This document shows positions 32,554 through 60,354 of a stretch of DNA of 64,000 nt, one piece after another. The stretch comes from Aquilaria yunnanensis (Eukaryota > Streptophyta > Magnoliopsida > Malvales > Thymelaeaceae), in NCBI GenBank assembly GCA_039654915.1, contig CM077600.1, positions 39,974,492 through 40,038,491 of the forward strand. Direction: 5' to 3'. The position numbers and the translations under genes are program-made. The notes beneath the pieces were generated by a model. It was not told the origin of the DNA. It saw nothing but the letters and a program-made list of their open reading frames with translations, and did not search any database. Positions within the stretch are counted from its first letter, which is position 1; every line of letters begins with the position of its first letter.

Positions 32554-32555
<2 letters not shown>

Positions 32556-35326
32556 TGGCAACGTCGGGTTTTCGGGAGTCGCCACCAATCAGTTTTCTTA
32601 GGTCGATTGGTCACCTTATAATTGGTCTGCGAGAGTTCGGGGATCGGGAGTGCGGTTACGCTAAAACAATATTGTTATAGCGCCCAAAATTGGCACCTTA
32701 GTTGATTTTAATTTTGTTTTGCTTTGCTTTTAAATAAATTTCAGTTAATTTTCAATCTAGAATTTTTAACTGAATTAATCGGATGTGGATTTTTGGTAAT
32801 TAATTTGTATAGAATTTTATACTTCCGAACCATGGACTCTGCCGAGTCATTTGGACACGGAAGATTTGATTCCGAACCATGGACTCTGCCGAGTCACCCG
32901 GACACGGAATTTGACGAAATTTTAAATAACTTAATCCATATCGTAAATATGAATTTTTATCTTTGTGTTTATTTATATTCAATTAAAAAAAAGTTTATAT
33001 TTTCCAAACCGTAGATCCTGCCGGATCATCCGGATATGGAAATTAATAAAATTTAATTTAATTATTAAATTTTTATAGCATCAATATTTTAAAGTCTACG
33101 GTTAACTAAAATAATTTGATCCATAATTTCTAAAATTTAGAGCAATTCTTTAGATAAAATTTTTTTATTGATATTAAAAAAAATTAGAGTTTAATAAGAG
33201 ATTAAAAATTTTAATAAATTATTATTTTTTTATAACGAAGAAAATATGTATAAGTTCAAAGCACATATATTTCTTTTTAATAATATAACGTAAAAGAAAA
33301 ATCCAACTCAAAATTAAAATAAAAAATTTTATTACTTATAATAAAAAATTATTTTAATGCTAGATTTATATAATTAAATTCCTGCAATAACATATGGTTC
33401 ACGTAAAGGTAGAGTGAGCAAAACAAACAAATAAGAAAATAAAAATAAAATAAAATAAAAAAAATAATATATTAATAGACCAGACATAGTGCAGCAAGAT
33501 AATTAGTTACCAAAATTGGTTAATCACAATTTGTCCCATAATAATTAGATAAAATTACATTTTTACCCTCATATTTCAGAAATATAAACTTTACCTCTTT
33601 GCTTTTTAAGACAACTGATAGTAACTTTTTTAAAATTTTAATTTTAATGTTACGGTAGCTATATTTTTTAATTTCAATCAATTTTTAGTTAAGGGACATT
33701 TCAAATTATTAATTTTTTAATATGAAAACTACAGTATTATTGTTTATGTCAATTAACCAAAAATACCACAAAGATTGAAATTAACTGAAAATAGATAATA
33801 CAATCTAAATTAAAATTTTAGAGGTTGTTATCAAAATGTATTAAAAAGATTTAGCGGCAAACTATATATTTTTAAAATAAGAGGGGAGAAAATGTAATTT
33901 TACATAAAACCTTAAGAATAAATTGTAATTACTGCAATAAAATATGTACAAGAACGAAAAAAAAAAATTATATAGATATTTACAATTATAGCCTTATCAA
34001 TATTTAGTTACTAAAAATCACATATGGAAAGATTTCACCACGCAGTTCTTTTGATGTATAAGTATATTGCAATGTACGTATGTAGATGGTCCATATTAGT
34101 ATACAAGTATGTATGTTTCACAACAATATAAATATTTATTTATTTATTTATTTTGATATTCTGAATCATCCAAGTTTATAAAGAGAGATATTTTTTTTAT
34201 TTATATCAATGCTGATATCATTCCAGTCATGCATTAAAACCATATAAAAATAATTCCGATTATTAGAGGATCGAAACAAACCAAGGATAAACAAAGAAAG
34301 GGCAAACAATAAATATAAACAAAAAAAAACCTTGCTGTCCATGCTTAATCTGCAAAGAAAACAACGATAGTGACTTGGATGGATAAAATAAGAAAGATCA
34401 AGGATTAAACGAGGGTTTTACCCAAAAATAAATTTTGACTTCGGTCAACAAAAAAACGAAAACGCGTAAACGCGTCTGTGTTTTTTTTTCAGTCGTCTTC
34501 GTCTTCAACTTCGTTTCTGGGTTCGAATCCTCCGGCGTCGGGCGGCGTGGCGAGCTGGCTGGTGAGCGACGCGACGGCAAGGAGGGGGAAGACGGCGAGG
34601 CGGCGTGACGGTGAGGCGAGGAGACGGTGGTGTATCGGCAGGGGCTGGAGCGACGTCGGAGGGAGGGCTAGGCACGGTGGCTTGAGCGGCTGGACAAAGG
34701 AAGGAGGTGTGCATGATGGACTCGGAGCGACGCGACGGTGAGAGGTCGCGATGGAAGCGGGCGGCCAGAGATGGAGGCCTGGGTTTGAGAGGAGAGAGAG
34801 AGAGCCGAGAGCTGGGAGTCCGAGGGAGAGGAGAGAGAGCGAGGGCTGAGAGAGATAGAGGGAGTGGGAGAGCTCGTGATTCTTGAGAGAGAGAGAGGCC
34901 GGGAGCTGGGAGAGTTGAGGCGAGAGAGAGGTGAAGAGGAAGAGTAAGGGAGAGCTTCTGTTGGTGGTGAGAGAGCTAGATTCAAGGCCAGGGGAGAGAG
35001 GAGAGAGGGGTTAGCTTTTTTTTTGTGTATCCCAGAGAGTGAGATCGAGAGCAGATAAGAAGGGGGGAGAGAAGATTCTGGAGAGGGCGAGAAGAGAGAG
35101 ACGTGTGGGAGTGAAAGAAGATTTTTTTTTTTTTTTAATTACATACATATAGATATTTATATATTATTTTTAACTAACCTTAAAATGTCCCCATAAGCTA
35201 TTTAATAATATTAATTAATTAATTAACAATAATAATTAATTTAATTAATTAATCTCTTTTTTTTTTATAAATTAATAATTTTATTTACTTTATTTTTTAA
35301 GAGTCGGACGAAATTGAGTGTCAACA
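32554..35326 (-). repeat. 3' LTR of copy B (2773 bp)
   Basis: TG...CA ends on the minus strand, beginning TGTTGACACTCAATTTCGTC and ending GTTGCCACA. The outer ~450 bp on the GCCACA side, including motifs with GGACTCTGCCGAGTC (32830-32900), match copies A and C. The interior (about 33060-35290) is unrelated to theirs and includes a GC-rich, CT-repeat leader-like block (34480-35125). Confidence 0.93.
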
Positions 35327-35340
35327 GCTGCCCCCCTTTG
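35327..35340 (-). other. Polypurine tract of copy B
   Basis: Minus strand CAAAGGGGGGCAGC abuts the 3' LTR and would prime plus-strand DNA synthesis. A 10-bp inverted repeat CTTTGCATGC / GCATGCAAAG (35336-35370) overlaps it. Confidence 0.8.
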
Positions 35341-35434
35341 CATGCTTCATGGGACATGATGCATGCAAAGTTGTTATCAAATTTCGTCCGACTTAGCTAG
35401 GCATTGAGAACCTTCTCGCCGCCTAAATCATGTG

Positions 35435-37170
35435 GTTAAGGAAAATTTTTTTAGAGCCTCTGCGATAAGAACTCTCTCCTATCGTTGAAGGGAAAATTTG
35501 ATTGAATGAGGTTAAGGGTCCTACCTTAGAATCTCGACGATAGGAACTCTCCTATCGTTTGAAGGAAAATTGATGATTTTGAGGTTAAGGGTCCTACCTT
35601 AGAACCTCGACGATAGGAACTCTCCTATCGTTTGAAGTAAAATTGATTGTTTTGAGGTTAAGGGTCCTACCTGAGAACCTCGACGATAGGAACTCTCCTA
35701 TCGTTTGAAGGAAAATTGATGATTTTGAGGTTAAGGGTCCTACCTTAGAACCTCGACGATAGGAACTCTCCTATCGTTTGAAGGAAAATTGATGATTTTG
35801 AGGTTAAGGGCCCTACCTTAGAACCTTGACGATAGGAACTCTCCTATCGTTTGAAGGAAAATTGATTGTTTTGAGGTTAAGGGTCCTACCTTAGAACCTC
35901 GACGATAGGAACTCTCCTATCGTTTGAAGGAAAATTGATTGTTTTGAGGTTAAGGGTCCTACCTTAGAACCTCGACGATAGGAACTCTCCTATCATTTGA
36001 AGGAAAAATTGATGATTTTGAGGTTAAGGGTCCTACCTTAGAACCTCGACGATAGGAACTCTCCTATCGTTTGAAGGAAAATTGATGATTTTGAGGTTAA
36101 GGGTCCTACCTTAGAACCTCGACGACAGGAACTCTCCTATCGTTTGAAGGAAAATTGTTTGAATGAGGTTAAGGGTCCTACCTTAGAACCTCGACGATAG
36201 GAACTCTCCTATCGTTTGAAGGAAAATTGATGATTTTGAGGTTAAGGGCCCTACCTTAGAACCTTGACGATAGGAACTCTCCTATCGTTTGAAGGAAAAT
36301 TGATTGTTTTGAGGTTAAGGGTCCTACCTTAGAACCTCGACGATAGGAACTCTCCTATCGTTTGAATGAAAATTGTTTGAATGAGGTTAAGGGTCCTACC
36401 TTAGAACCTCGACGATAGGAACTCTCCTATCGTTTGAAGGAAAATTGATGATTTTGAGGTTAAGGGCCCTACCTTAGAACCTCGACGATAGGAACTCTCC
36501 TATCGTTTGAAGGAAAATTGATTGTTTTGAGGTTAAGGGTCCTACCTTAGAACCTCGACGATAGGAACTCTCCTATCGTTTGAAGGAAAAATTGATGATT
36601 TTGAGGTTAAGGGTCCTACCTTAGAACCTCGACGATAGGAACTCTCCTATCGTTTGAAGGAAAATTGATGATTTTGAGGTTAAGGGTCCTACCTTAGAAC
36701 CTCGACGACAGGAACTCTCCTATCGTTTGAAGGAAAATTGTTTGAATGAGGTTAAGGGTCCTACCTTAGAACCTCGACGATAGGAACTCTCCTATCGTTT
36801 GAAGGAAAATTGATGATTTTAAGGTTAAGGGCCCTACCTTAGAACCTCGACGATAGGAACTCTCCTATCGTTTGAAGGAAAATTGATGATTTTGAGGTTA
36901 AGGGTCCTACCTTAGAACCTCGACGATAGGAACTCTCCTATCGTTTGAAGGAAAATTGTTTGAATGAGGTTAAGGGTCCTGCCTTAGAACCTCGACGATA
37001 GGAACTCTCCTATCGTTTGAAGGAAAATTGATGATTTTGAGGTTAAGGGTCCTACCTTAGAACCTCGACGATAGGAACTCTCCTATCGTTTGAAGGAAAA
37101 TTGATTGTTTTGAGGTTAAGGGTCCTACCTTAGAACCTCAACGATAGGAACTCTCCTATCGTTTGAAGGA
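35435..37170. repeat. 73-bp satellite, each unit with an 8-bp hairpin
   Basis: About two dozen tandem units carrying GAGGTTAAGGGTCCTACC, TTAGAACCTCGACGATAGGA and TCCTATCGTTTGAAGG. CGATAGGA-ACTC-TCCTATCG forms a perfect stem-loop in nearly every unit (a few have one mismatch, e.g. GACAGGA). It lies in the element's 3' region, between the other satellite and the polypurine tract. Confidence 0.93.
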
Positions 37171-38255
37171 AAATTGATGGATGTCGAGGTAAAGGTTCCA
37201 TCCTTAAAACCTCGAATTGATTGATTGATCTCGAGGCAAAGGTTCCATCCTTAAAACCTCGGATTGATTGATTGATTTCGAGGCAAAGGTTCCATCCTTA
37301 AAACCCCGATGATGAAAATTGATTTTGAGGCAAAGGTTTCATCCTTAAAACCTCAGATTGATTGATTGATGTCGAGGCAAAGGTTCCATCCTTAAAACCT
37401 CGGATTGATAATTGATCTCGAGGCAAAGGTTCCATCCTTAAAACCCCGGATTGATTGATTGATCTCGAGGCAAAGGTTCTATTCTTAAAACCTCGGATTG
37501 ATTGATTGATTTCGAGGTAAAGGTTTCATCCTTAAAACCTCGAATTGATTGATTGGTCTCGAGACAAAGGTTCCATCCTTAAAACCTCGGATTGATTGAT
37601 TGATTTCGAGGCAAAGGTTCCATCCTTAAAACCTCGAATTGATTGATTGGTCTCGAGGCAAAGGTTCCATCCTTAAAACCTCGGATTGATTGATTGATTT
37701 CGAGGCAAAGGTTCCATCCTTAAAACCTCGGATTGAAAATTGATTGTTTTCGAGGCAAAGGTTCCATCCTTAAAACCCCGATGAAAATTGATTGTTTTCG
37801 AGGCAAAGGTTCCATCCTTAAAACCCCGATGATGAAAATTGATTATTTTTGAGGCAAAGGTTCCATCCTTAAAACCCCGATGGTGAAAATTGATTATTTT
37901 CGAGGCAAAGGTTCCATCCTTAAAACCCCGATGATGAAAATTGATTGTTCTTCGAGGCAAAGGTTCCATCCTTAAAACCCCGATGATGAAAATTGATTGT
38001 TTTCGAGGCAAAGGTTCCATCCTTAAAACCCCGATGATGAAAATTGATTATTTTCGAGGCAAAGGTTCCATCCTTAAAACCCCGATGGTGAAAATTGATT
38101 ATTTTCGAGGCAAAGGTTCCATCCTTAAAACCCCGATGAAAATTGATTGTTTTCGAGGCAAAGGTTCCATCCTTAAAACCTCGATGATGAAAATTGATTT
38201 TTTTCGAGGCAAAGGTTCCATCCTTAAAACCCCGATGATGAAAATTGATTATGAT
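37171..38255. repeat. 47-51-bp satellite array, copy B
   Basis: About 22 units sharing GGCAAAGGTTCCATCCTTAA. Those near 37200-37730 use a GATTGATTGATT spacer (47 bp), while 37740-38255 use GATGATGAAAATTGATT (51 bp), the type seen at 1-470 in copy A. Confidence 0.92.
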
Positions 38256-38790
38256 TGTGGAGAAAAACTCTTTCCTCCTTTTTAAGTACCTCAGACAATC
38301 GAAGTTGAAATGTTCTATTCGGAAGTGTGAATTTTCATAATAGGTGAGTGCAGAAATTTATACTTCGATAAGATGAGTGAATCTTGATGATGACAATAAC
38401 ACTAACAAATTATGTAGAGGGAACGGATGTTTGGAATCAATATCCAAGGTTCATATAATATTTTCTTCAGTAAATATAGATTCCCTTGTGAGATATGTCA
38501 TCCGAATAAGGTTAAAACTTAACTACCCCAAAATGTTATGCCTAGTAGACCTAATAGGATGCGTCTCAAGAGTAAAAAAAATTACTCTTTACTCAGCCAT
38601 TCCATCCTAAAGGCGTTGTCCTATGGTTTTAATATCAGCATGGACGAAGCTATATTATAAAAAAAGAAATTCCCTGAAAAGAAAAACTGAAACGCGAAAG
38701 AAAATGCTGATAATAAAACTAAAGGACAAGAAAAACGGATCAGATCGCTTCTTTCTTCCACAATACTTCAAAAGGGTGAGTAGAGGACCA
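38256..38790. other. Spacer between satellite and LOG (copy B)
   Basis: Orthologous to 471-1019 of copy A. No gene seen. Confidence 0.6.
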
Positions 38791-39507
38791 TTATGGGAGT
38801 GAACTGGTCGGGAAAGACTGTCGTGTCCAGTCTATCTGAATCATTGCTGGATCTGGTTCAGGAACAAAAGCTTGTATTTTATCTAGCAATTCTTCAGCAG
38901 TTGTTGCGGATATTATGATTCGCCGTGCCACTCTTGATATGAAATTCTTCTGCATAGCATAATCCATAAAAGCTATCAGACCTGTAAAGAAATTGTTAAT
39001 ATTCAATAGCCCAATAGGTTTCTTATGCAAATTAAGTTGGGCCATGGAAGCGATTTGGAAGATTTCTCCTAATGTATCAAAACCGCCGGGTAAAGCGATG
39101 AAAGCATCAGCATTTAAAAGCATTTGTAGCACACGTTCTTGAAGATTTTTGACCACTAGCTCCTCTCCGATCGTGCCCCCAGAAATAAACTTCAAAGGTC
39201 CAGGGATGATGCCCAAAACTTGACTTCCTCCTAAAGATGCTGCTGATGCTACACCTCCCATTAATCCGACACTACCTCCTCCATAAACTAAATGTATTTT
39301 TCGCTCAGCTAATACTCTACCCAAATGGTTGGATGCCTTTAAATACTCTTCATCTTTTCCAGGAAAAGCCCCAGAAAATACACAAATACTTCGGGATTTA
39401 CGAGTTGGGGTTTTCTCCATTCCTATCCTTATCCTTGTGAGAAAAGAGGATATATTTATAGAAATGAAGAGATAAGGTAATAATTTTATTTTCAAGAGTG
39501 GATACAT
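38791..39507 (-). CDS. LOG-like cytokinin riboside 5'-monophosphate phosphoribohydrolase, intronless, full frame (copy B)
   Basis: Longest frame 238 residues; the LOG domain probably starts at Met30 (39420), after which length fits the ~200-aa plant enzyme. A Rossmann-type fold with [11 protein letters not shown] (75-85), GTIGEELVVKNLQERVLQML (Arg125 at the conserved arginine position) and the signature at 140-148, which reads PGGFDTLGE: the conserved second-half Gly is Asp144. Glu148 is kept. Family enzymes cleave cytokinin nucleotides to free bases in the cytosol; the G to D change may impair this copy. The C-terminal EPDPAMIQIDW is typical of a divergent plant LOG clade, so the donor was a plant gene. 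Absence of introns indicates cDNA capture. A TATA box lies 31-40 nt before Met30. Confidence 0.88.
   Translation of the reverse strand: MYPLLKIKLLPYLFISINISSFLTRIRIGMEKTPTRKSRSICVFSGAFPGKDEEYLKASNHLGRVLAERKIHLVYGGGSVGLMGGVASAASLGGSQVLGIIPGPLKFISGGTIGEELVVKNLQERVLQMLLNADAFIALPGGFDTLGEIFQIASMAQLNLHKKPIGLLNINNFFTGLIAFMDYAMQKNFISRVARRIIISATTAEELLDKIQAFVPEPDPAMIQIDWTRQSFPTSSLP
39451..39460 (-). promoter_or_regulatory. TATA-like box of LOG (copy B)
   Basis: Minus strand TATAAATATA upstream of Met30, downstream of the 87-bp repeats. Confidence 0.5.
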
Positions 39508-39514
39508 TATTGCC

Positions 39515-39965
39515 AGCTATACACAGTAGTCACGAGTATGACTCTGGTCAGGTATGGGTACACTATCGTTAAAAGAGGAGGAAAATTTTCAAAATAGCTG
39601 CTAGCATGTACAGTAGTCACTACTGTAGCTTACGTCAGGAGTAGGTACGTGATTGTTGGAAGGGAAGGAAAATTTCAAAAGTGGCAGCTATATACAGTAG
39701 TCCGTGTCAGGAGTGGGTACATTATTGCCAAAGGGGAGGAAAATTTCAAAAGCGACAGCTAGCACGTACAGTAATCGTAACTATGGCTCATGTCAGGAGT
39801 GGATACATTATCGCTGAAAGGGGAGGAAAATTTCAAAAGCGACAGCTAGTACGTACAGTAATCGTGACTTTGGTTCACGTCAGGAGTGGATACATTATTA
39901 CCAAAAGGGGAGGAAAATTTCAAAAGCGACAGCTAGCACGTACAGTAATCGTGACTTTGATCCTC
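39515..39965. repeat. ~87-bp tandem repeats upstream of LOG (copy B)
   Basis: Five units with GACAGCTAGCACGTACAGTA, ATCGTGACTTTGGTTCACGT and GGGGAGGAAAATTTC. They lie between NABP3 and the LOG TATA box and resemble the region in front of NABP2 (63860-63960 in C). Candidate amplified upstream regulatory module. Confidence 0.78.
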
Positions 39966-40007
39966 GTCTTCCACTGGCTTTGCGTCCAGTAATGGCTTCA
40001 ATGCTTT

Positions 40008-40556
40008 CTATGAATCGGTGATTTGCATCTCATCTAGCTTTCTCACAAACTGGCAAACAGGGTCGTTTAGGGTCAGATTCCCAAGACTGTAACGATCTCG
40101 TTCTTTTTGGAAAATTATCCATAATCCAACAACCTCAAATTGCACTATTCCGCAAGAATGCGCTTCAAGAACCTCTCGAATATCTTCTAGAGATTCCTTA
40201 CGCAAGCCATTCTTAATGAATCTTATTCTATCATTACGATTTCTGGTGATCACTCCTGGAGCACGACATTTATTGCCGCAAATCCACCATCCACAATTAT
40301 GACAAACGCCTAGCCTCTTTGCTCTTCTTTTTTTGGCATAAGCGCTTTTACCAAAGCCGGGCATACGGGGAAAGAACGCTTCGGGAACTTCACCAGCTGA
40401 ACGAACCTTAGCTTCAATTAGCCACCGCACATTATCAGGAATGCCTTTGTGCATAAATACTCTGAATCGTTCACATCTATCTTGATAAATCTTTTTAAGA
40501 ACATTTATTGGGAAGGAAGGAAAATACTTTCGTAGGGCGGAAAGAGATGACTCCAT
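40008..40556 (-). CDS. NABP3: betaflexivirus-NABP-like C4 zinc-finger protein, intact (copy B)
   Basis: 182 residues from the MESSLSALRKYF start; an in-frame ATG five codons upstream (40571) is less likely because NABP1 and NABP2 start at the homologous downstream ATG. GKSAYAKKRRAKRLGVC runs into finger CHNCGWWICGNKC, then NRNDRIRFIKNGLRKESLED. It is the only full-length NABP3 in the window. Its central ~200 bp are almost identical to NABP2 of the same element (41080-41275), which points to recent gene conversion. Function is predicted nucleic-acid binding only. Confidence 0.75.
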   Translation of the reverse strand: MESSLSALRKYFPSFPINVLKKIYQDRCERFRVFMHKGIPDNVRWLIEAKVRSAGEVPEAFFPRMPGFGKSAYAKKRRAKRLGVCHNCGWWICGNKCRAPGVITRNRNDRIRFIKNGLRKESLEDIREVLEAHSCGIVQFEVVGLWIIFQKERDRYSLGNLTLNDPVCQFVRKLDEMQITDS

Positions 40557-40615
40557 TGATAAAGGAGGCAAAGAAAGAAATTAGTGATTGTAGGAAACGA
40601 AAATAACTAACACAT

Positions 40616-40660
40616 ATTTATAGTGATGAAAGGGATAATGTGTTAATTACACTTACAAAA
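40616..40660 (-). promoter_or_regulatory. TATA box and shared upstream module of NABP3 (copy B)
   Basis: Minus strand CACTATAAATATGTG preceded by ACATTATCCCTTTCATC, the module also found before NABP2. Confidence 0.65.
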
Positions 40661-40772
40661 GCAAGTACATTATTGTCAAAAGAAAAGACAAATGACAGCT
40701 TATATGTACAGCAATCATGACTGTGGCTCTCATTTTCCACTAGTTTATGTCTAGTAACGGCTTCAATGCCTT

Positions 40773-41321
40773 CTATAAGTCGGGGATTTGCTTCCCATCC
40801 AGTTTTCTCACAAACTGGCAAACAGGGTCATTAAAAGTTAGATTTCCAAGACTGTAACGATCCTGTTCTTTACGGAAAGTCCACCATAAATTCATAATTT
40901 CCCATTGCACTATTTCACAAGAATGTGTTTCAAAAGTTAATAGGATATCATCCAAAGATTCCTTACGCAGGCCATTCTTGATGAATTTTCTTTTATCTTC
41001 ATGATTTCTGGAGATGTATCCTAAAAAGCGACATTTAGTATTACAATTCCATCGTCCACATTTATGACAGACACCTAGCCTCTTTGCTCTTCGCTTTTTG
41101 GCATAAGCGCTTTTACCAAAGCCGGGCATACGGGGAAAGAACGCTTCTGGAACTTCACCAGCTGAACGAACCTTAGCTTCAATTAGCCACCGCACATTAT
41201 CAGGAATGCCTTTGTGCATAAATACTCTGAATCGTTCACATCTAGCTTGATAAATCTTTTTAAGAACATTTATTGGAAGGGAAGGAAAGTATTTTCGCAG
41301 TGCAGAAAGAGTAGAATCCAT
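40773..41321 (-). CDS. NABP2: betaflexivirus-NABP-like C4 zinc-finger protein, intact (copy B)
   Basis: 182 residues. Same layout as the other paralogues: YFPSLPINVLKKIY, GKSAYAKKRRAKRLGVC, finger CHKCGRWNCNTKC, KFIKNGLRKESLDD. Residues about 17-86 are nearly those of NABP3 in this element and unlike NABP2 of copy A, while both ends stay NABP2-like, so this gene is a mosaic. The 3' end overlaps a second frame (40618-40821) that begins PVCEKTGWEANPRLIE and is also open behind other paralogues. Predicted small basic nucleic-acid-binding protein; virus origin inferred. Confidence 0.75.
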   Translation of the reverse strand: MDSTLSALRKYFPSLPINVLKKIYQARCERFRVFMHKGIPDNVRWLIEAKVRSAGEVPEAFFPRMPGFGKSAYAKKRRAKRLGVCHKCGRWNCNTKCRFLGYISRNHEDKRKFIKNGLRKESLDDILLTFETHSCEIVQWEIMNLWWTFRKEQDRYSLGNLTFNDPVCQFVRKLDGKQIPDL

Positions 41322-41401
41322 TGATGAGAGAAGAATTTGAGAGAAGAGGGAAATTAATCAGTTATTGTAGGAGACTGGAATAACCGACTGGAAGAACATG
41401 C

Positions 41402-41445
41402 ATTTATAGCGATGAAATGGATAACGTGTCGATTACACTTACGGG
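41402..41445 (-). promoter_or_regulatory. TATA box and shared upstream module of NABP2 (copy B)
   Basis: Minus strand GCTATAAATGCATG, with TCGACACGTTATCCATTTC immediately upstream. Confidence 0.65.
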
Positions 41446-41567
41446 AGCAAATACGTTATTAAAAGAAAAATGGAAAATTTTAAATATGATAAATTGTATG
41501 TACAGTGATTGTGACTGTGGCTCACATCTTCCACTGGTTTTACGTCCAGTAATGGGATTAACGGCTT

Positions 41568-42116
41568 CTATGAGTCGAGGATTTGCTTCCCATCCAGTTT
41601 TCTTACAAGCTGGCAAATAGGGTCGTTTAACGTCAGATTCCCGGGACTGTATCGTTCTCGTTCTTCATGAAAAATGCTCCATAAATCGAGAAGTTCACGT
41701 TGCACGGATCCACAAGAATGCGTCTCAAGAGTCAATTGGATATCATCCAATGAGTCCTTACTCAGGCCATTCTTAATGAATCGTATTTTATCTTCTCGAT
41801 TATCAGAGATCATCCCTAAAGAACGACATTTAGTATTACAGGTCCAGCGTCCGCATTTATAACAGACGCCTAGTCTCCTCGCTCTTCGCTTTTTGGCATA
41901 AGAGCTTTTGCCTACACCAGGCATGTGAGACACAAATGCCTCTGGGATTTCACCTGCCAGACGAACCTTAGCTTCAATTAACTACCGCACATCTTCAGGG
42001 ATTCATTTATGCATCAGAGCTCTTAATCGTTCACAGCGAACTTGGTAGATCTTTTTGAGGATGTTCATTGGGAGAGAAGGAAAATATTTTCGCAAGGCAG
42101 AAAAAGTAGGATCCAT
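41568..42116 (-). pseudogene. NABP1, disrupted by two stops (copy B)
   Basis: Homologous over its full length to NABP1 of A (3731-4279) and C (63283-63831). Codons 38 (GGA to TGA) and 45 (TGG to TAG) are stops, so only a late ATG at 41933 could give a 121-residue product; that would keep the basic region and the finger CYKCGRWTCNTKC. Confidence 0.82.
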
Positions 42117-42229
42117 TTTCTAGGAGAAAGTAAAAGAAATGAGGGAGGAAAGGATCAGTTATTATGGGCAACTGAGAGAACCGACTTGAGAGTCACGGAG
42201 TACCGTATCCGCCACTTAACCGGAAAAGT

Positions 42230-42935
42230 GGATCCTACTTTATTTTGATGTGAATGATATTTCTTATCTTTGATATTCCATCCAGCTGACGTCGATCGAG
42301 TCCTTGATTATTGAATCTTTTGTCCGCTTTTGACAAAGTTTCAACGACAATATTTCTTGATGTCTGCCTTATCTTTGACCACAGCTATCTCTTATCTTGG
42401 ATGCTGCTAAGCTGGCATCAATCCTGTCCTACCAGGTGTAGCCTCGATTATTGAATCAATTGCCAGGCTTTTGACAATATTGTCTATTTTATATATATAT
42501 ATTTTTTGATATCTGCCTTATCCTTGGCTATAGCTATCTCTTATCTTGGATACTACTAGCTGACGTCAATCCTGTCCTTCCAGGTGTAGTCTCGATTATT
42601 AAATCGATTGCCAGGCTTTTGACAATATTGTCTACTTTATATTTTTTTTATATCTGGCTTATCCTTGGCTATAGCTATCTCTTATCTTGGATACTACTAG
42701 CTGGCGTCAATCCTATCCTTCCAGGTGTATCCTCGATTATTAAATCGATTGCCAGGCTTTTGACAATATTGTCTACTTTATATTTTTTTTTTATATATGG
42801 CTTATCCTTGGCTATAGCTATCTCTTATCTTGGATACTACTAGCTGGCGTCAATCCTATCCTTCCAGGTGTATCCTCGATTATTGAATCGGTAGCCAAGC
42901 TTTTAACAATATTGTCTACCTTATCCTTGAATTCC
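42230..42935. repeat. ~145-bp tandem repeats (copy B, four or more units)
   Basis: Units with CTATAGCTATCTCTTATC, TTGGATACTACTAGCTGG and TTTTGACAATATTGTCTACT. Neighbouring units are almost identical, showing recent expansion relative to copies A and C. Confidence 0.88.
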
Positions 42936-43700
42936 TGATGCGGGTTGGTCCCGCGTATTAGCTGTGTATCCAGTGATAGACTGGTAAGAGCTGATGTCAT
43001 TGAGATCTCAGTTTATATTGCTGCAACGATGCCGTAGATGTGCTTCCCATTCGATCCCTGTTATGTAAAAGCCATGTATGTGTGATGTGAAATGCATGGA
43101 TGCAGATCATGCGTAACTAATTGTTTTTTTTTTTATATGGATCTAGTTCTTCATGTCTTTGCTTTATTAGATCCTCTTTGTGATTGCCTTCTTGGACTAT
43201 TATTGAATCTCTTTATGCTTCTCAGCTCTTGTTCGCTGCCTCAAAAGTCCAACTCTTTTCAAAGTCCGCTTTCTTTGACTTGTTCTTGAATTTTGGCCTC
43301 AATTTCTTTAATGTTCACTCGCCTCATACTTTATATCTCTTCAAATACTCATCCCTTGTCATGGATTTCATACTATCAAAGGCTTAACTTTCAATGTTTC
43401 ATTGTCCCTTTTCTTGTGGCCGTGTCGACACTTGTTTACCCCCATGTTACAGTCCGAATGATTGCTCTTCCTTAGACTCAGGTTCTGATCCATAAGACTT
43501 GCCCCCTTGTCTATTGAGCTTCTTTGTTGGCAGTACTCCTCTTACGCTTCGTAGAGACTACTTTGCCCCCCTGAATATGGTATTTATGTGGATAAAAGGT
43601 ATCACCTCGCCTTTAACAGAAGGTCGAGCATTTCTAGACCTTTGTGATGGCACTTGATCGTAAATTTCTCTTACAAGAATCATATCTTATTAAAGAAAGA
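42936..43700. other. Element spacer, no gene seen (copy B)
   Basis: Orthologous to 4861-5600 in copy A, without a consistent reading frame. Confidence 0.5.
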
Positions 43701-43706
43701 CTCAAG

Positions 43707-43898
43707 CTATCTCCTCACTTTTAAGTCTACATACATTAATGAATAATGGTTTGGCCTTAAAGAAAAACTTTCATCAATTTGCAAAGCTTGACAAAGTAAT
43801 TTACGGTCTTTGTTTTCAATTAAAATATCCTGCCATTCTTCCCTTTCCAACTCGAAGACATAAACTGTGCAAGGCAATAAGGTATAAACATGATTCGC
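43707..43898 (-). other. Conserved open frame without ATG (copy B)
   Basis: Orthologue of 5601-5792. The codon that is GTG in A and C is GCG here, yet the frame (WQDILIENKDRKLLC) stays open to the same stop region. Confidence 0.35.
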
Positions 43899-43899
43899 A

Positions 43900-44345
43900 A
43901 GGATAGCCTTTTAGCTGAATGAGGATGATATCGAGAGGTAACTGTTAGGCGTGAGGAAAATTAAGTTTGAATGTTTTTTTTTTTTTGTAGCAGTCTTTTA
44001 GCTGAATGAGAATAATATTAAGAGGTAAATATTAGGTCTGAGTAAAGTTAAGTTTGAGTGGTATGAAAGAAAGGTATTTTAATACTACTCGTGAGTAGTA
44101 TTAAATAAGGTAGAAACATGATTCACAATGATAGTCTTTTAACTGAATGAGGATGTTAGGTCTGAGGAAAGTTAAATTTAAGTGGTGTGAAAGAAGGTCT
44201 TTTAATACTACTCGTGAGCAGTATTAAATAAGGTAGAAACATATTTGACAATGATAGTCTTTTAACTGAATGAGGATGATAAGTCTGAGAAAAGTTAAGT
44301 TTAAGTGGTTTGAAAGAAGGGTCTTTTAATACTACTCGTGAGCAA
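43900..44345. repeat. ~120-bp tandem repeats (copy B)
   Basis: Same family as 5793-6245, with AATACTACTCGTGAGCAGTA in each unit. Confidence 0.85.
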
Positions 44346-45040
44346 ATTTGATTATGGTGAAAAACTCAATAGTGATGACCTCAAACTTGCCACTCTTTCC
44401 AGAAAGTTAAACCTCATCTGTTGCCCCCCAACTATCGTGGTCTTTATGTATGCTTGGCTTGAGGGTTGCTTTTGTCTTCTAAACCGCCTTTGCAGGTTTT
44501 CAGTCTAGAATCCATAGCTCACTTTTTTGTTTTCTTTCTTTTGCTCTAACTTGAGCCCTTTTTCTTTTTTTTTTCTTTTTTTTTTTTCTTTGTTTCCTTT
44601 TTTTGTTTTTTTTTTGTTTTTTTTTTTTTGTGTGAGCTATGATGATGGCATACTTGATAACTCTCTTGAAGTGAGATGACTTAAGTGACCTTGCATGCTC
44701 GTGCTTGTTCTCAGTCTCTTTTTGGTTTTGAATTTTCCCTTGTTGCTTTTTTTTTTTTATGGAAGGGATGAACTTCTCTTCTTTTTGGAGTTTGTGTTGC
44801 GGAGAACAGAGAACCTTTTCTTATGTTGAGCATTAAGAAGGGTTTGGGAGGTCATTAAAGCCATTTAATATGAGAGCTACCTTCTTTGGAAGCTAACTCA
44901 GACTTCTTGCAAGGATGTCGATAACCACTGTGAATTCTTTTTTAGGGTTGAGGTGCAACATTTGAAATCCTTCTTACTAGATTTGGTAGCACTTTGAAGA
45001 TCATTACTATCAAATCTCCTTTAACTTTTATTTTCACCCA
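44346..45040. other. T-rich tract and single unit of the ~160-bp repeat (copy B)
   Basis: A T-rich run at 44520-44635 is followed by one to two CTTGAAGTGAGATGAC units. No gene. Confidence 0.6.
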
Positions 45041-45044
45041 CGAG

Positions 45045-45385
45045 TAGTATTGTTTACAAAGTAAAGTATGATAGCAATAATGGATAGTATAATGGAAAGG
45101 AGTGAGAGATAGATGTAAAAACGGAATTTTTGGTAAGAAGTGGTAGAATGTGTAGGTGTAATAATTGAATTTTTGGTAAAAATTGGTAGAATGTGTAGAA
45201 GTAATAATGGGATTAAAAAGTGGTAGAATGCACACGCAACATCTTTTTGTTAGAGAACAAAAAGAATTACCGGTTGTCAAAAAGTAAAGTGTGATGGCTA
45301 TAATGGATAGTATAATAGCAAAGAGTGTAAAAATGGAAAGTAGTAGAATGCACGCATCACATCTTTTTGTTGTACCAGAAAAAGA
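45045..45385. repeat. Minisatellite with GGTAGAATGTGTAG core (copy B)
   Basis: Orthologue of 7215-7570. Confidence 0.75.
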
Positions 45386-45609
45386 ATAGCAGGTGTCCAT
45401 TTAACAAAGACTACACCCTAGATTCTGGACTAAATCTAGGAGATTTTTACTATTAGATTACTTTTGCAAGCTTTCAAAGATGCAAGCTTAGTAAAAGGAT
45501 TCCCTGTTATTCAAAAGTGTGTGCGAACTGTTAGATCGGATCTGACTTAGAGTCCTTCCAAAATCAATGTAATTCCAGCTCAAAATCTTCACTTTCAATT
45601 ACCAATCAC

Positions 45610-45901
45610 ATCATGGCCTAGGAATTTAAACTCGACCAACTATTGGACCTTGAGTTTCAGTGCCACACAATTTTCAATTACATTTGGGATTTGGGTCACA
45701 CCAACTTGGAAGAGAAGGTCACTTGGCCTTTGCTACTATTGATATAGATGATAGCAGAATGCCTTCTTCAGCAAAGACTGTGATTAACTTTCCTTCAAAA
45801 ATGAATTTCATTTTTTGGTGTAATGAGGAGGGAATTGCTTCGGCCATATTTTCTATCTTGGACTCTATATCTATGAGACGTCCTTCGGTTTGTTCTGCCA
45901 T
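45610..45901 (-). pseudogene. gag: Internally deleted gag with a scrap of downstream gag-protease coding (copy B)
   Basis: Starts like the other gags (MAEQTEGRLIDIESKIENMA), then after about 20 residues jumps to IPSSLHQKMKFIFEGKLITV, followed by EEGILLSSI. That second part matches nothing in the gags of A or C but looks like the plant gypsy gag-protease region downstream of the catalytic site. After a stop and frame slip the sequence rejoins the common 3' end near GATGTGATTGGTAATTGA. Copy B thus retains different ancestral gag-pol sequence and lost pol by a different deletion. It makes no functional Gag. Confidence 0.7.
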
Positions 45902-46389
45902 TAGTCTTGTTTGGAGCCGAGTTGAATATCGGTGTTGAGATCCAATTTTACCCCTTTAAAGTAAGATTCATTTTATTAACTTCTACGTGTATGTGATTGA
46001 TGCAATGGATGCATGCATGCAATGAGTGAGTTTGATTATCCATTATCATGGAACTTAAGACTTCTAGTTGTCATTATAAAGACCAAAAAGTTAGCATAAT
46101 TTGATGCGTGGTTTTAATGCATGAAGAATAATTGCACAGAACGGAAGTATAACAAAAGAAAAATAAGGTTATTAACAAGTTAAATAGTAATTAACAATTC
46201 ATGAAGTATTATGGATAAACAAGTTAAAACCATACGAAGAAAAGTGTATAGTAACAACACAGCATAATAAGGATATGCTTATGGTGTTGGTAAAAATGGT
46301 AGAAATTCTATGGTCAGTTCTATGGTTAAGTGGGGAGTTCTATATGCATAAGGTGGCTTATCAAAAAGGCAAGGGATAGTTCCCGAATC

Positions 46390-46412
46390 CCGTCACTAAA
46401 TCATAGTGACGG
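46390..46412 (-). promoter_or_regulatory. Leader stem-loop (copy B)
   Basis: CCGTCACTA / TAGTGACGG stem identical to copies A and C. Confidence 0.45.
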
Positions 46413-46434
46413 CCCGATTCCTTACCCTCTAGGG

Positions 46435-46635
46435 TTAATGTAAGGAATGGATTAATTCGAGTCGTAGCTTTTCGTGGGCCCATGCAGAGACTAACCGTCT
46501 CAGAAGGCAATACACTACTTTGCTACTTTGAAACCGGTGAAGGCTTGGAGACCATGGCCTCACAAGGACAGCAACACCAATTCCGCTTAGAAAGAATCGT
46601 GTTTGATTTAAGGAAGCTCGGGTATAGAGTTTCAT
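46435..46635 (-). CDS. Conserved 66-codon leader ORF (copy B)
   Basis: Nearly identical to 10531-10731 (LRLELIHSLH at the end). Unknown function; may act as an upstream ORF. Confidence 0.3.
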   Translation of the reverse strand: MKLYTRASLNQTRFFLSGIGVAVLVRPWSPSLHRFQSSKVVYCLLRRLVSAWAHEKLRLELIHSLH

Positions 46636-46749
46636 TTTGTGAATGCATTATGCATGTTTATTTAAGTAAATATAATATATAAATCCACATAATAGTAAAG
46701 CAGAGTAAATCAAAACAAATCAACTTTAGGCTCGACTCACTAACCAGGG

Positions 46750-46768
46750 TCCCCAGCGGAGTCGCCAA
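46750..46768 (-). other. Primer-binding site (copy B)
   Basis: Minus strand TGGCGACTCCGCTGGGGAC, two bases from the 5' LTR end at 46771. Confidence 0.82.
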
Positions 46769-46770
46769 GC

Positions 46771-49547
46771 TGTGGCAACGTCGGGTTTTCGGGAGTCGCC
46801 ACCAATCAGTTTTCTTAGGTCGATTGGTCACCTTATAATTGGTCTGCGAGAGTTCGGGGATCGGGAGTGCGGTTACGCTAAAACAATATTGTTATAGCGC
46901 CCAAAATTGGCACCTTAGTTGATTTTAATTTTGTTTTGCTTTGCTTTTAAATAAATTTCAGTTAATTTTCAATCTAGAATTTTTAACTGAATTAATCGGA
47001 TGTGGATTTTTGGTAATTAATTTGTATAGAATTTTATACTTCCGAACCATGGACTCTGCCGAGTCATTTGGACACGGAAGATTTGATTCCGAACCATGGA
47101 CTCTGCCGAGTCACCCGGACACGGAATTTGACGAAATTTTAAATAACTTAATCCATATCGTAAATATGAATTTTTATCTTTGTGTTTATTTATATTCAAT
47201 TAAAAAAAAGTTTATATTTTCCAAACCGTAGATCCTGCCGGATCATCCGGATATGGAAATTAATAAAATTTAATTTAATTATTAAATTTTTATAGCATCA
47301 ATATTTTAAAGTCTACGGTTAACTAAAATAATTTGATCCATAATTTCTAAAATTTAGAGCAATTCTTTAGATAAAATTTTTTTATTGATATTAAAAAAAA
47401 TTAGAGTTTAATAAGAGATTAAAAATTTTAATAAATTATTATTTTTTTATAACGAAGAAAATATGTATAAGTTCAAAGCACATATATTTCTTTTTAATAA
47501 TATAACGTAAAAGAAAAATCCAACTCAAAATTAAAATAAAAAATTTTATTACTTATAATAAAAAATTATTTTAATGCTAGATTTATATAATTAAATTCCT
47601 GCAATAACATATGGTTCACGTAAAGGTAGAGTGAGCAAAACAAACAAATAAGAAAATAAAAATAAAATAAAATAAAAAAAATAATATATTAATAGACCAG
47701 ACATAGTGCAGCAAGATAATTAGTTACCAAAATTGGTTAATCACAATTTGTCCCATAATAATTAGATAAAATTACATTTTTACCCTCATATTTCAGAAAT
47801 ATAAACTTTACCTCTTTGCTTTTTAAGACAACTGATAGTAACTTTTTTAAAATTTTAATTTTAATGTTACGGTAGCTATATTTTTTAATTTCAATCAATT
47901 TTTAGTTAAGGGACATTTCAAATTATTAATTTTTTAATATGAAAACTACAGTATTATTGTTTATGTCAATTAACCAAAAATACCACAAAGATTGAAATTA
48001 ACTGAAAATAGATAATACAATCTAAATTAAAATTTTAGAGGTTGTTATCAAAATGTATTAAAAAGATTTAGCGGCAAACTATATATTTTTAAAATAAGAG
48101 GGGAGAAAATGTAATTTTACATAAAACCTTAAGAATAAATTGTAATTACTGCAATAAAATATGTACAAGAACGAAAAAAAAAAAATTATATAGATATTTA
48201 CAATTATAGCCTTATCAATATTTAGTTACTAAAAATCACATATGGAAAGATTTCACCACGCAGTTCTTTTGATGTATAAGTATATTGCAATGTACGTATG
48301 TAGATGGTCCATATTAGTATACAAGTATGTATGTTTCACAACAATATAAATATTTATTTATTTATTTATTTTGATATTCTGAATCATCCAAGTTTATAAA
48401 GAGAGATATTTTTTTTATTTATATCAATGCTGATATCATTCCAGTCATGCATTAAAACCATATAAAAATAATTCCGATTATTAGAGGATCGAAACAAACC
48501 AAGGATAAACAAAGAAAGGGCAAACAATAAATATAAACAAAAAAAAACCTTGCTGTCCATGCTTAATCTGCAAAGAAAACAACGATAGTGACTTGGATGG
48601 ATAAAATAAGAAAGATCAAGGATTAAACGAGGGTTTTACCCAAAAATAAATTTTGACTTCGGTCAACAAAAAAACGAAAACGCGTAAACGCGTCTGTGTT
48701 TTTTTTTCAGTCGTCTTCGTCTTCAACTTCGTTTCTGGGTTCGAATCCTCCGGCGTCGGGCGGCGTGGCGAGCTGGCTGGTGAGCGACGCGACGGCGAGG
48801 AGGGGGAAGACGGCGAGGCGGCGTGACGGTGAGGCGAGGAGACGGTGGTGTATCGGCAGGGGCTGGAGCGACGTCGGAGGGAGGGCTAGGCACGGTGGCT
48901 TGAGCGGCTGGACAAAGGAAGGAGGTGTGCACGATGGACTCGGAGCGACGCGACGGTGAGAGGTCGCGATGGAAGCGGGCGGCCAGAGATGGAGGCCTGG
49001 GTTTGAGAGGAGAGAGAGAGAGCCGAGAGCTGGGAGTCCGAGGGAGAGGAGAGAGAGCGAGGGCTGAGAGAGATAGAGGGAGTGGGAGAGCTCGTGATTC
49101 TTGAGAGAGAGAGAGGCCGGGAGCTGGGAGAGTTGAGGCGAGAGAGAGGTGAAGAGGAAGAGTAAGGGAGAGCTTCTGTTGGTGGTGAGAGAGCTAGATT
49201 CAAGGCCAGGGGAGAGAGGAGAGAGGGGTTAGCTTTTTTTTTGTGTATCCCAGAGAGTGAGATCGAGAGCAGATAAGAAGGGGGGAGAGAAGATTCTGGA
49301 GAGGGCGAGAAGAGAGAGACGTGTGGGAGTGAAAGAAGATTTTTTTTTTTTTTTTTTTAATTACATACATATAGATATTTATATATTATTTTTAACTAAC
49401 CTTAAAATGTCCCCATAAGCTATTTAATAATATTAATTAATTAATTAACAATAATAATTAATTTAATTAATTAATCTCTTTTTTTTTATAAATTAATAAT
49501 TTTATTTACTTTATTTTTTAAGAGTCGGACGAAATTGAGTGTCAACA
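46771..49547 (-). repeat. 5' LTR of copy B (2777 bp)
   Basis: Essentially identical to 32554-35326. The four-base length difference is in homopolymers (A run near 48174, T runs near 49340 and 49480). Confidence 0.93.
49374..49388 (-). promoter_or_regulatory. LTR promoter TATA-like box and CT-rich leader (copy B)
   Basis: Minus strand AATATATAAATAT is followed, in transcription order, by a T/C-rich stretch and the CT-repeat block 49350-48990, resembling the pyrimidine-rich leader of an ordinary plant gene. It replaces the CTATAAATAG promoter used by A and C. Confidence 0.45.
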
Positions 49548-53138: not shown

Positions 53139-53185
53139 TATTTAATTACTTTTATTTCTAAGTTAATTAAATATCTGATCTTAAG

Positions 53186-58380: not shown

Positions 58381-58449
58381 AATCTTACTTTAAAAAGGGG
58401 TAAAATTGGACCTCAACGCCGATATCCAACTCAGCTCCAAACAAGATTA

Positions 58450-60354
58450 ATGGCAGAACAAGCCGAAGGACGTCTCATGGAGATGGAGTCCAAGATTGAA
58501 AGTATGGAAGAACAAATGAGACAATTGATGGAAATAATCAAAGGGAAAGCAACTCAAGTTCCCATCAAAGAAGTACAAGATCCCACTTATCCTCCGGGAT
58601 TCACCCCACAACGAGTCTCAGTCCAAGAAAACCTGTTTCAGGAACCAGGACAGTCTGCTAGTGTTCACCTGAAACAAGACACTGTGTATGAAGAGAAGAA
58701 GACACCACCAAAGGAAGAAGGAGAATCTCAAAAACTCGAAACTATAGAGAAGAGACTGCGAGCCATTGAAGGAGGTAATATATTCGGATCTCTCTCAGTG
58801 GATGACCTCTGTTTAGTGCCAGACGTCGTAATCCCTTGGGACTTTAAGGTGCCAGATTTCGTGAAATACGATGGAACGAGTGATCCCATCACTCACATCA
58901 CATTGTTTATAAGGAGACTACAACCACTCACAAAAGATGAAAATGTGTGGATTGCACTTTTTTAGGAAAGCCTCACAAAATCAGCATTACAGTGGTATCT
59001 AAGTCAAGGTCCAAGAAACATTAAAACTTGGAATGACCTTGCTCAGGCCTTCATCGTCAATTATAAACACGTTATGGACTTGGCTCCAGATCGCCAAACT
59101 CTCCAAAACATGGAGAAGAAAAAGCCAGAAACTTTCAAGGAATATGCCCAACGGTGGAGGGACTTAGCTGCACAAGTTCAGCCACCCATGACAGAAAAAG
59201 AAATGGTCACTTTGTTTGTCCAGACACTGAAATACCCATATTATGACAAACTCATTGGCAATTCGGCAACTAATTTCTCCGATGTTGTCATGTCTGGAGA
59301 AAGGATCGAGCATGGGATTAGGACTGGGAAGATTGCTGAGTCCTTTAGTGATCCTATGAAAAGAGGAGGACCATCCAGAACAAAAGATGAAGAAGTACAA
59401 CAAATAGGACGCGAAAGAGGGATTCCCCTCATAGGTACTGTGGCTACCGGTCCTCGCCTATCCTATTCTGCCAAAAGGCCCAATTATTATCCTACCAATA
59501 GGCCCAATGACTATCCTCCCAATATGCCCAATGATTATCCTTCCAATAGGCCTAATGATTATCCTCCCAATAGGCCCAACAATTATCCTCTCAATAGGCC
59601 TAATCAGTTACGGCCACCTGTTCCGACTCCTCTAGTACCCACACGAAGACCAAAAGAAGTTTTTGCACCAATTCCCATGACTTACACTGAGTTGTATCCA
59701 AAACTCATTGAAAGTCAACTTATCCGTCCAATTCCTACAAATCCATTTGGACCCCCATATCCAACGTGGTATGACCCCAACATAACTTACCCATATCATG
59801 ATGGCGTTCCAGGCCATGACTTGGAAAATTGCACAGCATTGAAACGTATAGTCCAACAATTAATCGAATCAAAGTGGTTGAACTTTTCCGATGAACCGAA
59901 CGTCACTCACAATCCATTGCCGCCTCATCAAGAAAAACCAGTCAATATGATAAAAGAACACCGGCTGATGAAAAAGTCAGTCAATGATATCATAACCCCT
60001 CTTAAGCATGTATATTCATGCCTTGTGAAAGAAGGGATTATCATGGGAAAGCCTTCTTTTGGACATGAAGAAGTTGAAGATGAGGAATGGTGCAACTTTC
60101 ATGACAGTAAGAGTCATTTTATCCAAGAATGCTCAGAATTTTGTAAGAATCTGCAAAGACTCATAGACTCATCCCAACTTATCATTTTTATGTCAGATAA
60201 AGATGATGATGTGAATGTGATCATTAAAGAACAAGAAGTCAATGTTATACCAATCTCAAAACCTACTCTTAAGCCGTCAAGTCCCGAGGCCATTCCTCTA
60301 CAAATCAAACAAAACCGAGGTCAAGCTGCTAGGCCTGATGTGATTGGTAATTGA
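58450..60354 (+). pseudogene. gag: Gag polyprotein with one in-frame stop (copy C)
   Basis: Starts MAEQAEGRLMEMESK; the frame is open upstream to 58327, but this ATG matches the start in A and B. TAG at 58963-58965 replaces the CAG of copy A (WIALFQESL), separating a 172-residue head from the Gag core remainder, RPNxYP repeats and two Cys/His knuckles (the first has Tyr for Cys: TYPYHDGVPGHDLENC). It has the full Gag C-terminus lost in A, ending ARPDVIGN, with a clean stop and no protease after it. Confidence 0.88.

What the first reader, a model, noticed from the sequence alone, without database searches (positions are those of the whole stretch)
32554..49547. An LTR retrotransposon that carries a cytokinin-activation gene and a triplicated virus-like zinc-finger gene family
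Copy B is bounded by 2.77-kb near-identical LTRs and AATAA target duplications, with primer-binding site and polypurine tract in place. Between gag and the polypurine tract, where pol should be, are NABP1, NABP2, NABP3 and an intronless LOG-like gene, all on the element's coding strand. Copies A and C show the same order, so the cargo moves as part of the element. Gene capture by plant LTR elements is known, but a multi-gene cargo pairing a hormone-activating enzyme with a putative viral nucleic-acid-binding family is, as far as I know, undescribed. Working hypothesis: the element manipulates host cells (cytokinin, silencing), as a virus or gall-forming pathogen would.
Basis: partly seen in the sequence, partly recalled or inferred. 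Interest (0 to 1): 0.96.

Follow-up and report, generated by a model that had tools for sequence, protein, structure and literature searches.

The report
Retrotransposon family with hormone-activating gene
A family of plant jumping genes, whose 3'-end junction occurs 2,296 times exactly in this genome, encodes behind its own polymerase a gene of the cytokinin-activating enzyme family and several zinc-finger proteins that resemble silencing suppressors of plant viruses, and these genes likely serve the element's own spread rather than being captured freight.

Summary
The structure is real, but it is a fragment of something larger. Copy B is a young LTR retrotransposon (LTRs 99.71% identical) carrying three NABP genes and a LOG gene. 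In the host assembly (842 Mb, unnamed plant) 10 of 10 sampled NABP loci carry NABP units plus LOG; 6 of 10 also have gag-protease and a 1,144-residue RT-RNaseH-aRNaseH-integrase region upstream. The parent is a roughly 25-kb Tat-lineage, Ogre-like Ty3/gypsy element with sense-strand accessory genes NABP(3-5)-LOG between pol and the 3' LTR. The genome holds 2,296 exact polypurine-tract/LTR junctions. In the same five pol-bearing loci LOG has dN/dS 0.03 and pol 0.25, so LOG looks useful to the element. NABP matches flexivirus cysteine-rich protein families. It also follows integrase in a second, Athila-like lineage: 65% identical there, although the integrase regions are 32% identical. In other plants 99 of 120 listed LOG relatives end in an LxLxL (EAR-like) tail, absent in the copies sampled here. 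LOG-type domains in LTR elements are already in print; NABP arrays, the NABP+LOG pairing and the tail were not found in print. Hormone and silencing functions are predicted, not shown.

The parts
46771..49547 (-). copy B, 5' LTR
   Evidence: 99.71% identical to 32554-35326 over 2,778 columns; begins TGTTGACA and ends GCCACA on the minus strand
46749..46767 (-). copy B, primer-binding-like site (TGGCGACTCCGCTGGGGAC)
   Evidence: 3 bases inside the 5' LTR; near-identical sites behind the 5' LTR in 4 of 4 other loci read. The matching tRNA was not identified
45749..45955 (-). copy B, remnants of gag-protease (two pieces, 39 and 34 residues)
   Evidence: tblastn with the gag-protease frame of L009
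41568..42117 (-). copy B, NABP1 (open only over 41568-41933)
40773..41321 (-). copy B, NABP2 (182 aa)
   Evidence: PF05515 26.3 bits, PF01623 25 bits; 150 of 150 scored genome places 97-100% identical
40008..40559 (-). copy B, NABP3
   Evidence: PF05515 26.8 bits, PF01623 22.1 bits
38791..39420 (-). copy B, LOG gene (209 aa from its second ATG; 238-aa frame to 39507)
   Evidence: PF03641 1.3e-28, TIGR00730 above cut-off; nearest solved structure by sequence At2g37210, 2.3e-50; Gly to Asp in the PGGxGT motif
35451..38250 (.). copy B, tandem-repeat arrays between LOG and the polypurine tract (73-, 47- and 51-bp units)
35327..35339 (-). copy B, polypurine tract (AAAGGGGGGCAGC)
   Evidence: the 27-mer PPT/LTR junction occurs 2,296 times exactly in the genome
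32554..35326 (-). copy B, 3' LTR
3731..4279 (-). copy A, NABP1
2893..3441 (-). copy A, NABP1b
   Evidence: 98.5% identical to NABP1b of L019
2120..2668 (-). copy A, NABP3 region (149-aa ORF from 2219)
984..1613 (-). copy A, LOG region, 94% identical to B; longest listed ORF 109 aa
7807..9714 (-). copy A, gag (matches residues 1-641 of the L009 gag-protease frame); no pol match in the window
   Evidence: PF03732; tblastn
58396..60276 (+). copy C, gag (matches residues 1-625 of the L009 frame, in two ORFs)
63283..63831 (+). copy C, NABP1

Best explanation
Copy B is a pol-less member of a family of very large Tat-lineage, Ogre-like Ty3/gypsy LTR retrotransposons that carry, between pol and the 3' LTR, a tandem set of virus-like zinc-finger genes (NABP) and a gene of the LONELY GUY (LOG) family, and these most likely act as the element's own accessory genes, LOG predicted to release active cytokinin and NABP predicted to bind nucleic acid and blunt host silencing. 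Shown here: gene order and strand, LTR bounds, high copy number, pol-bearing and pol-less forms, low dN/dS in LOG and NABP, the NABP match to flexivirus cysteine-rich protein families, and a related NABP behind integrase in a second retrotransposon lineage. Inferred: pol-less copies arose by deletion and are mobilised by proteins of pol-bearing relatives; NABP and LOG are made from spliced, subgenomic or internally started RNAs; LOG converts cytokinin riboside monophosphates to free cytokinin in the cell where a copy is active, which in a meristem favours division and so passage of new insertions to gametes; NABP enters the nucleus by its basic patch and protects or regulates element RNA.
For: 10 of 10 sampled loci carry NABP units then LOG on one strand. 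In 6 of 10 a 1,144-residue pol region and the gag-protease frame lie upstream, with RVT_1, RNaseH, RVT_3 (second RNaseH), H2C2 and rve, and a G-patch in gag-protease. 25 of 26 pol ends, 10 of 11 LOG and 10 of 10 NABP2 places listed on C1 up to 22.48 Mb have a same-strand PPT/LTR junction downstream; random positions average 0.2-0.7. LTR pairs 99.36-99.94% identical in 4 of 4 loci with both in hand, 5-bp duplications in 3 of 4. dN/dS: LOG 0.03 and pol 0.25 in the same five loci; LOG 0.09 over ten copies, pol 0.26 over six; NABP 0.15-0.40 over 21 pairs. The LOG motif PGGFGTLGE is in 10 of 10 sampled copies; in a 25-sequence alignment the motif Glu is invariant and the upstream Arg is 90% or more conserved. 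PF05515 in 73 and PF01623 in 72 of 83 NABP sequences. In the viral fold search 11 of the 12 best-ranked matches are silencing suppressors or nucleic-acid-binding proteins of plant flexiviruses, the twelfth unnamed. For such proteins silencing suppression, and for that of chrysanthemum virus B a transcription-factor role with hyperplasia, are reported (PMC12172455, passages).
Against: No expression, enzyme or silencing data. NCBIfam's LOG equivalog model scores 93.2 against a cut-off of 300. Copy B itself has Asp in the PGGxGT motif, and LOG is interrupted or cut in 3 of 10 sampled loci. The EAR-like tail common elsewhere is missing in this family. NABP fold matches are not significant (E 0.18 or worse, TM 0.33 or less by query), the model is moderate (mean pLDDT 70.8), and no solved structure matches meaningfully. 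dN/dS pairs are not independent, and LOG and pol have different dS in the same loci, so their histories differ.
Confidence: 0.5

Rival explanations
1. The genes are accessory but LOG no longer serves cytokinin: it is a stable nuclear adaptor, which in most plants would bind TOPLESS-type corepressors through its basic LxLxL tail, and NABP is an RNA chaperone or regulator of the element's own transcripts, like retroviral accessory proteins.
For: 99 of 120 listed LOG relatives end in LxLxL, 93 of them after a basic patch, against 0.65% in shuffles and 0 of 120 mTERF proteins. NABP has a conserved basic patch beside C-x2-C (103 of 120).
Against: The catalytic motif is kept: PGGxGTxxE in 107 of 120 listed relatives and 10 of 10 sampled copies here. 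In this genome 9 of 10 sampled copies have another C-terminus and the tenth frame stops short of it, so the tail cannot be essential. EAR function is recalled knowledge, not tested.
Confidence: 0.27
2. Passive capture: LOG and NABP are hitchhiking host or viral sequences amplified by chance with a successful element.
For: Gene capture by plant LTR elements is known (PMC7264820, parts 1-2 of 3). Some copies have lost the frame (3 of 10 LOG).
Against: LOG dN/dS 0.03-0.09, NABP 0.15-0.40; relatives of both genes are spread over many plants; a related NABP sits behind integrase in another lineage.
Confidence: 0.13
3. One reading: pol-less copies are a distinct cargo lineage in which NABP and LOG replaced pol and which lives by manipulating the host.
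For: Copies A, B and C and two sampled loci (L011, L015) lack pol, and B, L011 and L015 have near-identical LTRs. Copy B's LTR aligns only at its ends with the four other LTRs compared, so pol-less forms may include a lineage of their own.
Against: Pol-bearing copies carry the same genes downstream of pol, so nothing replaced pol; deletion is simpler.
Confidence: 0.1

Closest known systems
Ogre / Tat-lineage Ty3/gypsy elements (PMC6317226, passages)
   Same: second RNaseH between RNaseH and integrase; gag-protease and RT-RNaseH-INT in two ORFs with a short gap (173-190 bp in two loci read; average 274 bp in the paper); large size and extra ORFs
   Different: extra ORFs are sense-strand NABP units and LOG; the paper reports a plant mobile domain in 57% of Ogre elements
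LTR elements with a LOG/YgdH domain in Citrus and Populus (PMC9289625, section 12, which cites Steinbauerova 2011; from recall, that paper's abstract names two Athila-like elements with LOGL4 similarity)
   Same: LOG-type gene inside plant Ty3/gypsy elements
   Different: the passages and section read mention no NABP, no NABP array and no LxLxL tail; here the lineage is Tat and the copy number and constraint are measured
Retand elements with antisense TRP28 ORFs (PMC11963269, abstract, passages and section 11 part 1)
   Same: long pol-3'LTR region, tandem repeats, accessory ORFs with predicted nucleic-acid binding
   Different: accessory genes here are in sense orientation; no TRP28 match among the six accessory-region ORFs scanned
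Cysteine-rich proteins / NABPs of carla- and other flexiviruses (PMC12172455 and PMC9650830, passages)
   Same: Pfam PF01623/PF05515, basic patch followed by a Cys-rich finger
   Different: 182 aa in retrotransposon tandem arrays; C-x2-C-x4-C-x3-C in 104 of 120, which differs from the viral spacing as I recall it
TR-GAG / LARD non-autonomous LTR elements (recalled)
   Same: copies A and C keep gag without pol; B keeps neither
   Different: they keep accessory genes

Membership tests
LTR retrotransposon | paired LTRs, PBS, PPT, target-site duplication | tested here: met
   LTR pairs in B and 4 other loci; PBS-like site and PPT; 5-bp duplications in 3 of those 4 loci, ambiguous in B
Tat lineage of Ty3/gypsy | additional RNaseH (aRH) between RNaseH and integrase | tested here: met
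   PF13456 RVT_3 at residues 574-692 (L009) and 582-692 (L019) between RNaseH and integrase; window copies lack pol and are assigned through these relatives
Ogre clade | gag-protease and RT-RNaseH-INT in two ORFs separated by a short, intron-like region | tested here: met
   gaps of 173 and 190 bp in L009 and L019; splicing itself not tested
Ogre clade | tRNA type of the PBS and placement in an RT-RH-INT tree | not tested
   no reference set or tRNA match was run
Retand clade | antisense TRP28 ORF between pol and 3' LTR | tested here: not met
   no TRP28 match at E 0.1 in 6 accessory-region ORFs (4 of L020, 2 of the window); ORFs under 100 aa not scanned
LOG phosphoribohydrolase family | LOG fold family match and PGGxGTxxE motif | tested here: met
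   PF03641, TIGR00730 above cut-off; motif in 10 of 10 sampled copies, altered in copy B
LOG phosphoribohydrolase family | NCBIfam equivalog NF058542 cut-off | tested here: not met
   93.2 bits against 300
LOG phosphoribohydrolase family | enzyme activity on cytokinin riboside 5'-monophosphates | not testable with these tools
   needs protein
Flexivirus cysteine-rich protein / NABP family | Pfam PF05515 or PF01623 above cut-off | tested here: met
   5 of 5 window NABPs scanned; at E 0.001, 73 and 72 of 83 in alignment A3
Flexivirus cysteine-rich protein / NABP family | same fold | tested here: inconclusive
   11 of 12 best-ranked viral matches are of this kind but none has E below 0.18
Flexivirus cysteine-rich protein / NABP family | nucleic-acid binding, silencing suppression | not testable with these tools
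   needs assays

The most novel reading that the evidence does not exclude
Two distinct plant retrotransposon lineages share a portable, virus-like accessory kit, a flexivirus-type silencing suppressor array plus a cytokinin-activating enzyme, which lets an active copy escape silencing and push its own cell to divide, so that the cell lineage carrying new insertions is favoured on its way from meristem to gamete: hormone-driven cell-lineage drive by a retrotransposon.
Probability: 0.2. Interest if true: 0.95.

Novelty: new variant of a known kind. Interest (0 to 1): 0.72.

Why it matters
Accessory genes of plant LTR retrotransposons are mostly of unknown function. Here two of them belong to families with known biochemistry, in a family with over two thousand 3'-end junctions, and one (LOG) has a lower dN/dS than the element's own polymerase. 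That makes a direct test possible of whether a retrotransposon steers plant hormone levels and silencing, and of whether plant RNA viruses and retrotransposons have exchanged a suppressor gene.

Tried and rejected
Rejected: cargo in place of pol (pol-bearing copies found); a conserved host locus with chance LTRs around it; a Retand-type antisense TRP28 ORF (ORFs of 100 aa or more only).

Led nowhere: NABP scan of viral contigs, 0 relatives among 151 pattern matches. First NABP model, pLDDT 54.9, replaced by a deeper alignment; its PDB fold search gave three matches at E 7.7 or worse. A genome count for a LOG 30-mer did not complete. In one search the NABP1 query was cut out of frame, so its NABP1 rows mean nothing and are not used; a regular expression for the catalytic Arg was too loose and is not used. 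No tree of LOG against host LOG genes was made, because the 120 listed hits hold too few certain host genes. A remnant of the LxLxL tail was sought by eye in copy B's DNA without result. P0115 (Citrus) carries both Pfam labels in the database listing, but my own scan gave only PF18306, below its cut-off.

Paper searches behind 'not found in print'. Only open-licence full texts are held; Steinbauerova 2011 was not seen, only cited by others and recalled.

Odds changed little.


Full report
What was checked. Copy B is an LTR retrotransposon on the minus strand. Its LTRs (32554-35326, 46771-49547) are 99.71% identical over 2,778 columns. The primer-binding-like site and the polypurine tract sit where they should. 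The AATAA flanks lie in an (AAT)n repeat and are weak evidence alone. LOG and NABP are real matches: PF03641 at 1.3e-28 and TIGR00730 above cut-off for LOG; PF05515 and PF01623 between 1.5e-4 and 2.6e-6, above cut-off, for five NABP proteins. Copy B has lost gag as well as pol.

What it belongs to. The window lies at C8:39974492-40038491 of an 842-Mb assembly of 345 contigs. A NABP2 search scored 150 of 8,603 first-look candidates; all 150 were 97-100% identical and 149 had no stop. A LOG search scored 150 of 3,662; all were 98-100% identical, 148 matched over residues 1-209 and two over 2-209, none with a stop. Both lists are the best-scoring ones and so lean towards intact copies; the candidate numbers are not verified copies. 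Ten NABP2 loci, chosen by me from the 150 to cover top and lower ranks on six contigs, were fetched as separate halves. All 10 carry NABP units followed by LOG on the same strand. In 6 of 10 a pol region of 1,144 residues lies upstream, without internal stop in 4 and with one stop in 2, coding for RT, RNaseH, a second RNaseH and integrase, behind a gag-protease frame with a G-patch domain. Two of 10 lack pol (L011, L015), one has part of pol beside an inverted NABP-LOG duplication (L017), one has only a distant pol (L023). LOG is open end to end in 7 of 10. The motif PGGFGTLGE is in 10 of 10. NABP units number 3 to 5 in the loci without inverted duplication.

Bounds. Of four loci with both LTRs in hand, two pol-bearing and two pol-less, LTR pairs are 99.36-99.94% identical over the aligned parts. 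Three have 5-bp duplications; one pol-bearing locus has none. The other pol-bearing locus spans about 25.1 kb with an LTR of about 3.9 kb. The exact PPT/LTR 27-mer occurs 1,149 + 1,147 times, reversed control 0. The pol-end 30-mer with one mismatch allowed occurs 378 + 345 times, control 0, so roughly a third of the family ends keep that part of pol. On C1 up to 22.48 Mb, where the listing of exact PPT junctions is complete, 25 of 26 listed pol ends, 10 of 11 listed LOG places and 10 of 10 listed NABP2 places have a same-strand junction downstream (6.3-10.9, 3.0-4.1 and 3.9-7.0 kb); random positions give means of 0.7, 0.2 and 0.2.

Selection. Over 45 pairs of ten LOG copies (nine sampled copies and B; L026 left out because its frame is cut), 199 nonsynonymous and 644 synonymous differences give dN/dS 0.09; over 15 pairs of six pol copies it is 0.26. 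In the same five pol-bearing loci LOG gives 0.03 (14 and 116 differences over 10 pairs) and pol 0.25 (144 and 152). Seven open LOG copies alone give 0.10. NABP copies and paralogues give 0.15-0.40 over 21 pairs. Pairs are not independent, and synonymous divergence differs between LOG and pol in the same loci, so the two regions have partly separate histories. Still, this is hard to square with passive freight.

Elsewhere. NABP relatives (160 at E 0.001, 120 listed) come from plants where a name is given: Populus, Xanthoceras, Acer, Rhamnella, Orobanche, Citrus. LOG relatives (1,069, 120 listed) include many copies from Reevesia and Populus; whether each lies in an element was not seen. A Citrus gene model, P0115, reads NABP into a LOG-like stretch. 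P0085 from Rhamnella joins an integrase tail to NABP. L029, a 3.3-kb contig filed under a bacterial MAG and most likely plant contamination, has integrase, no RVT_3 match in the 495 residues present, and then NABP. Its integrase tail is 70% identical to P0085 and its integrase region 32% identical to that of this family, while its NABP is 65% identical to NABP2. I call that lineage Athila-like from the missing second RNaseH and from motifs recalled. Either the module moved between lineages or NABP is held far more tightly than integrase. L029 ends before any LOG, so NABP+LOG together in that lineage is not shown.

The LOG tail. 99 of 120 listed LOG relatives end in LxLxL, 93 with a basic patch before it; shuffling gives 0.65% and 120 mTERF proteins give 0. 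This is the form of an EAR repression motif (recalled). In this genome 9 of 10 sampled copies end otherwise and the tenth frame stops short.

Mechanism. Most likely these are accessory genes: LOG predicted to raise free cytokinin in cells where the element is active, NABP predicted to act in the nucleus or on RNA against silencing. For flexivirus cysteine-rich proteins silencing suppression and, for that of chrysanthemum virus B, a transcription-factor role with hyperplasia are reported (PMC12172455, passages). The steps from sequence to hormone, silencing and transmission are inferred.

Novelty. LOG-type domains in plant LTR elements are in print (PMC9289625, section 12). For NABP in LTR elements, NABP with LOG, and the LxLxL tail, my searches found nothing; the library holds open-licence papers only. 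Hence a new variant of a known kind.

Noticed in passing
26298-30711 (+): A Ty1/copia-like gag-pol in several overlapping ORFs, judged by eye from the ORF translations; not scanned.
   Followed up: no
18295-18885 (+): An mTERF-like host gene or exon (PF02536, 4.1e-9); nearest database relatives are 68% identical, so the host has no close relative among the listed proteins.
   Followed up: partly
53183-54304: A further LTR-like stretch, 78% identical to 57472-56375 in inverted orientation and about 90% identical to the start of copy B's LTRs; possibly a solo or cut LTR.
   Followed up: no
L029: A contig in a MAG labelled Candidatus Nomurabacteria reads as a plant Ty3/gypsy element with integrase then NABP; probably contamination of the MAG.
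   Followed up: yes
L017: The NABP-LOG segment is present as an inverted duplication, with two array copies facing each other.
   Followed up: no
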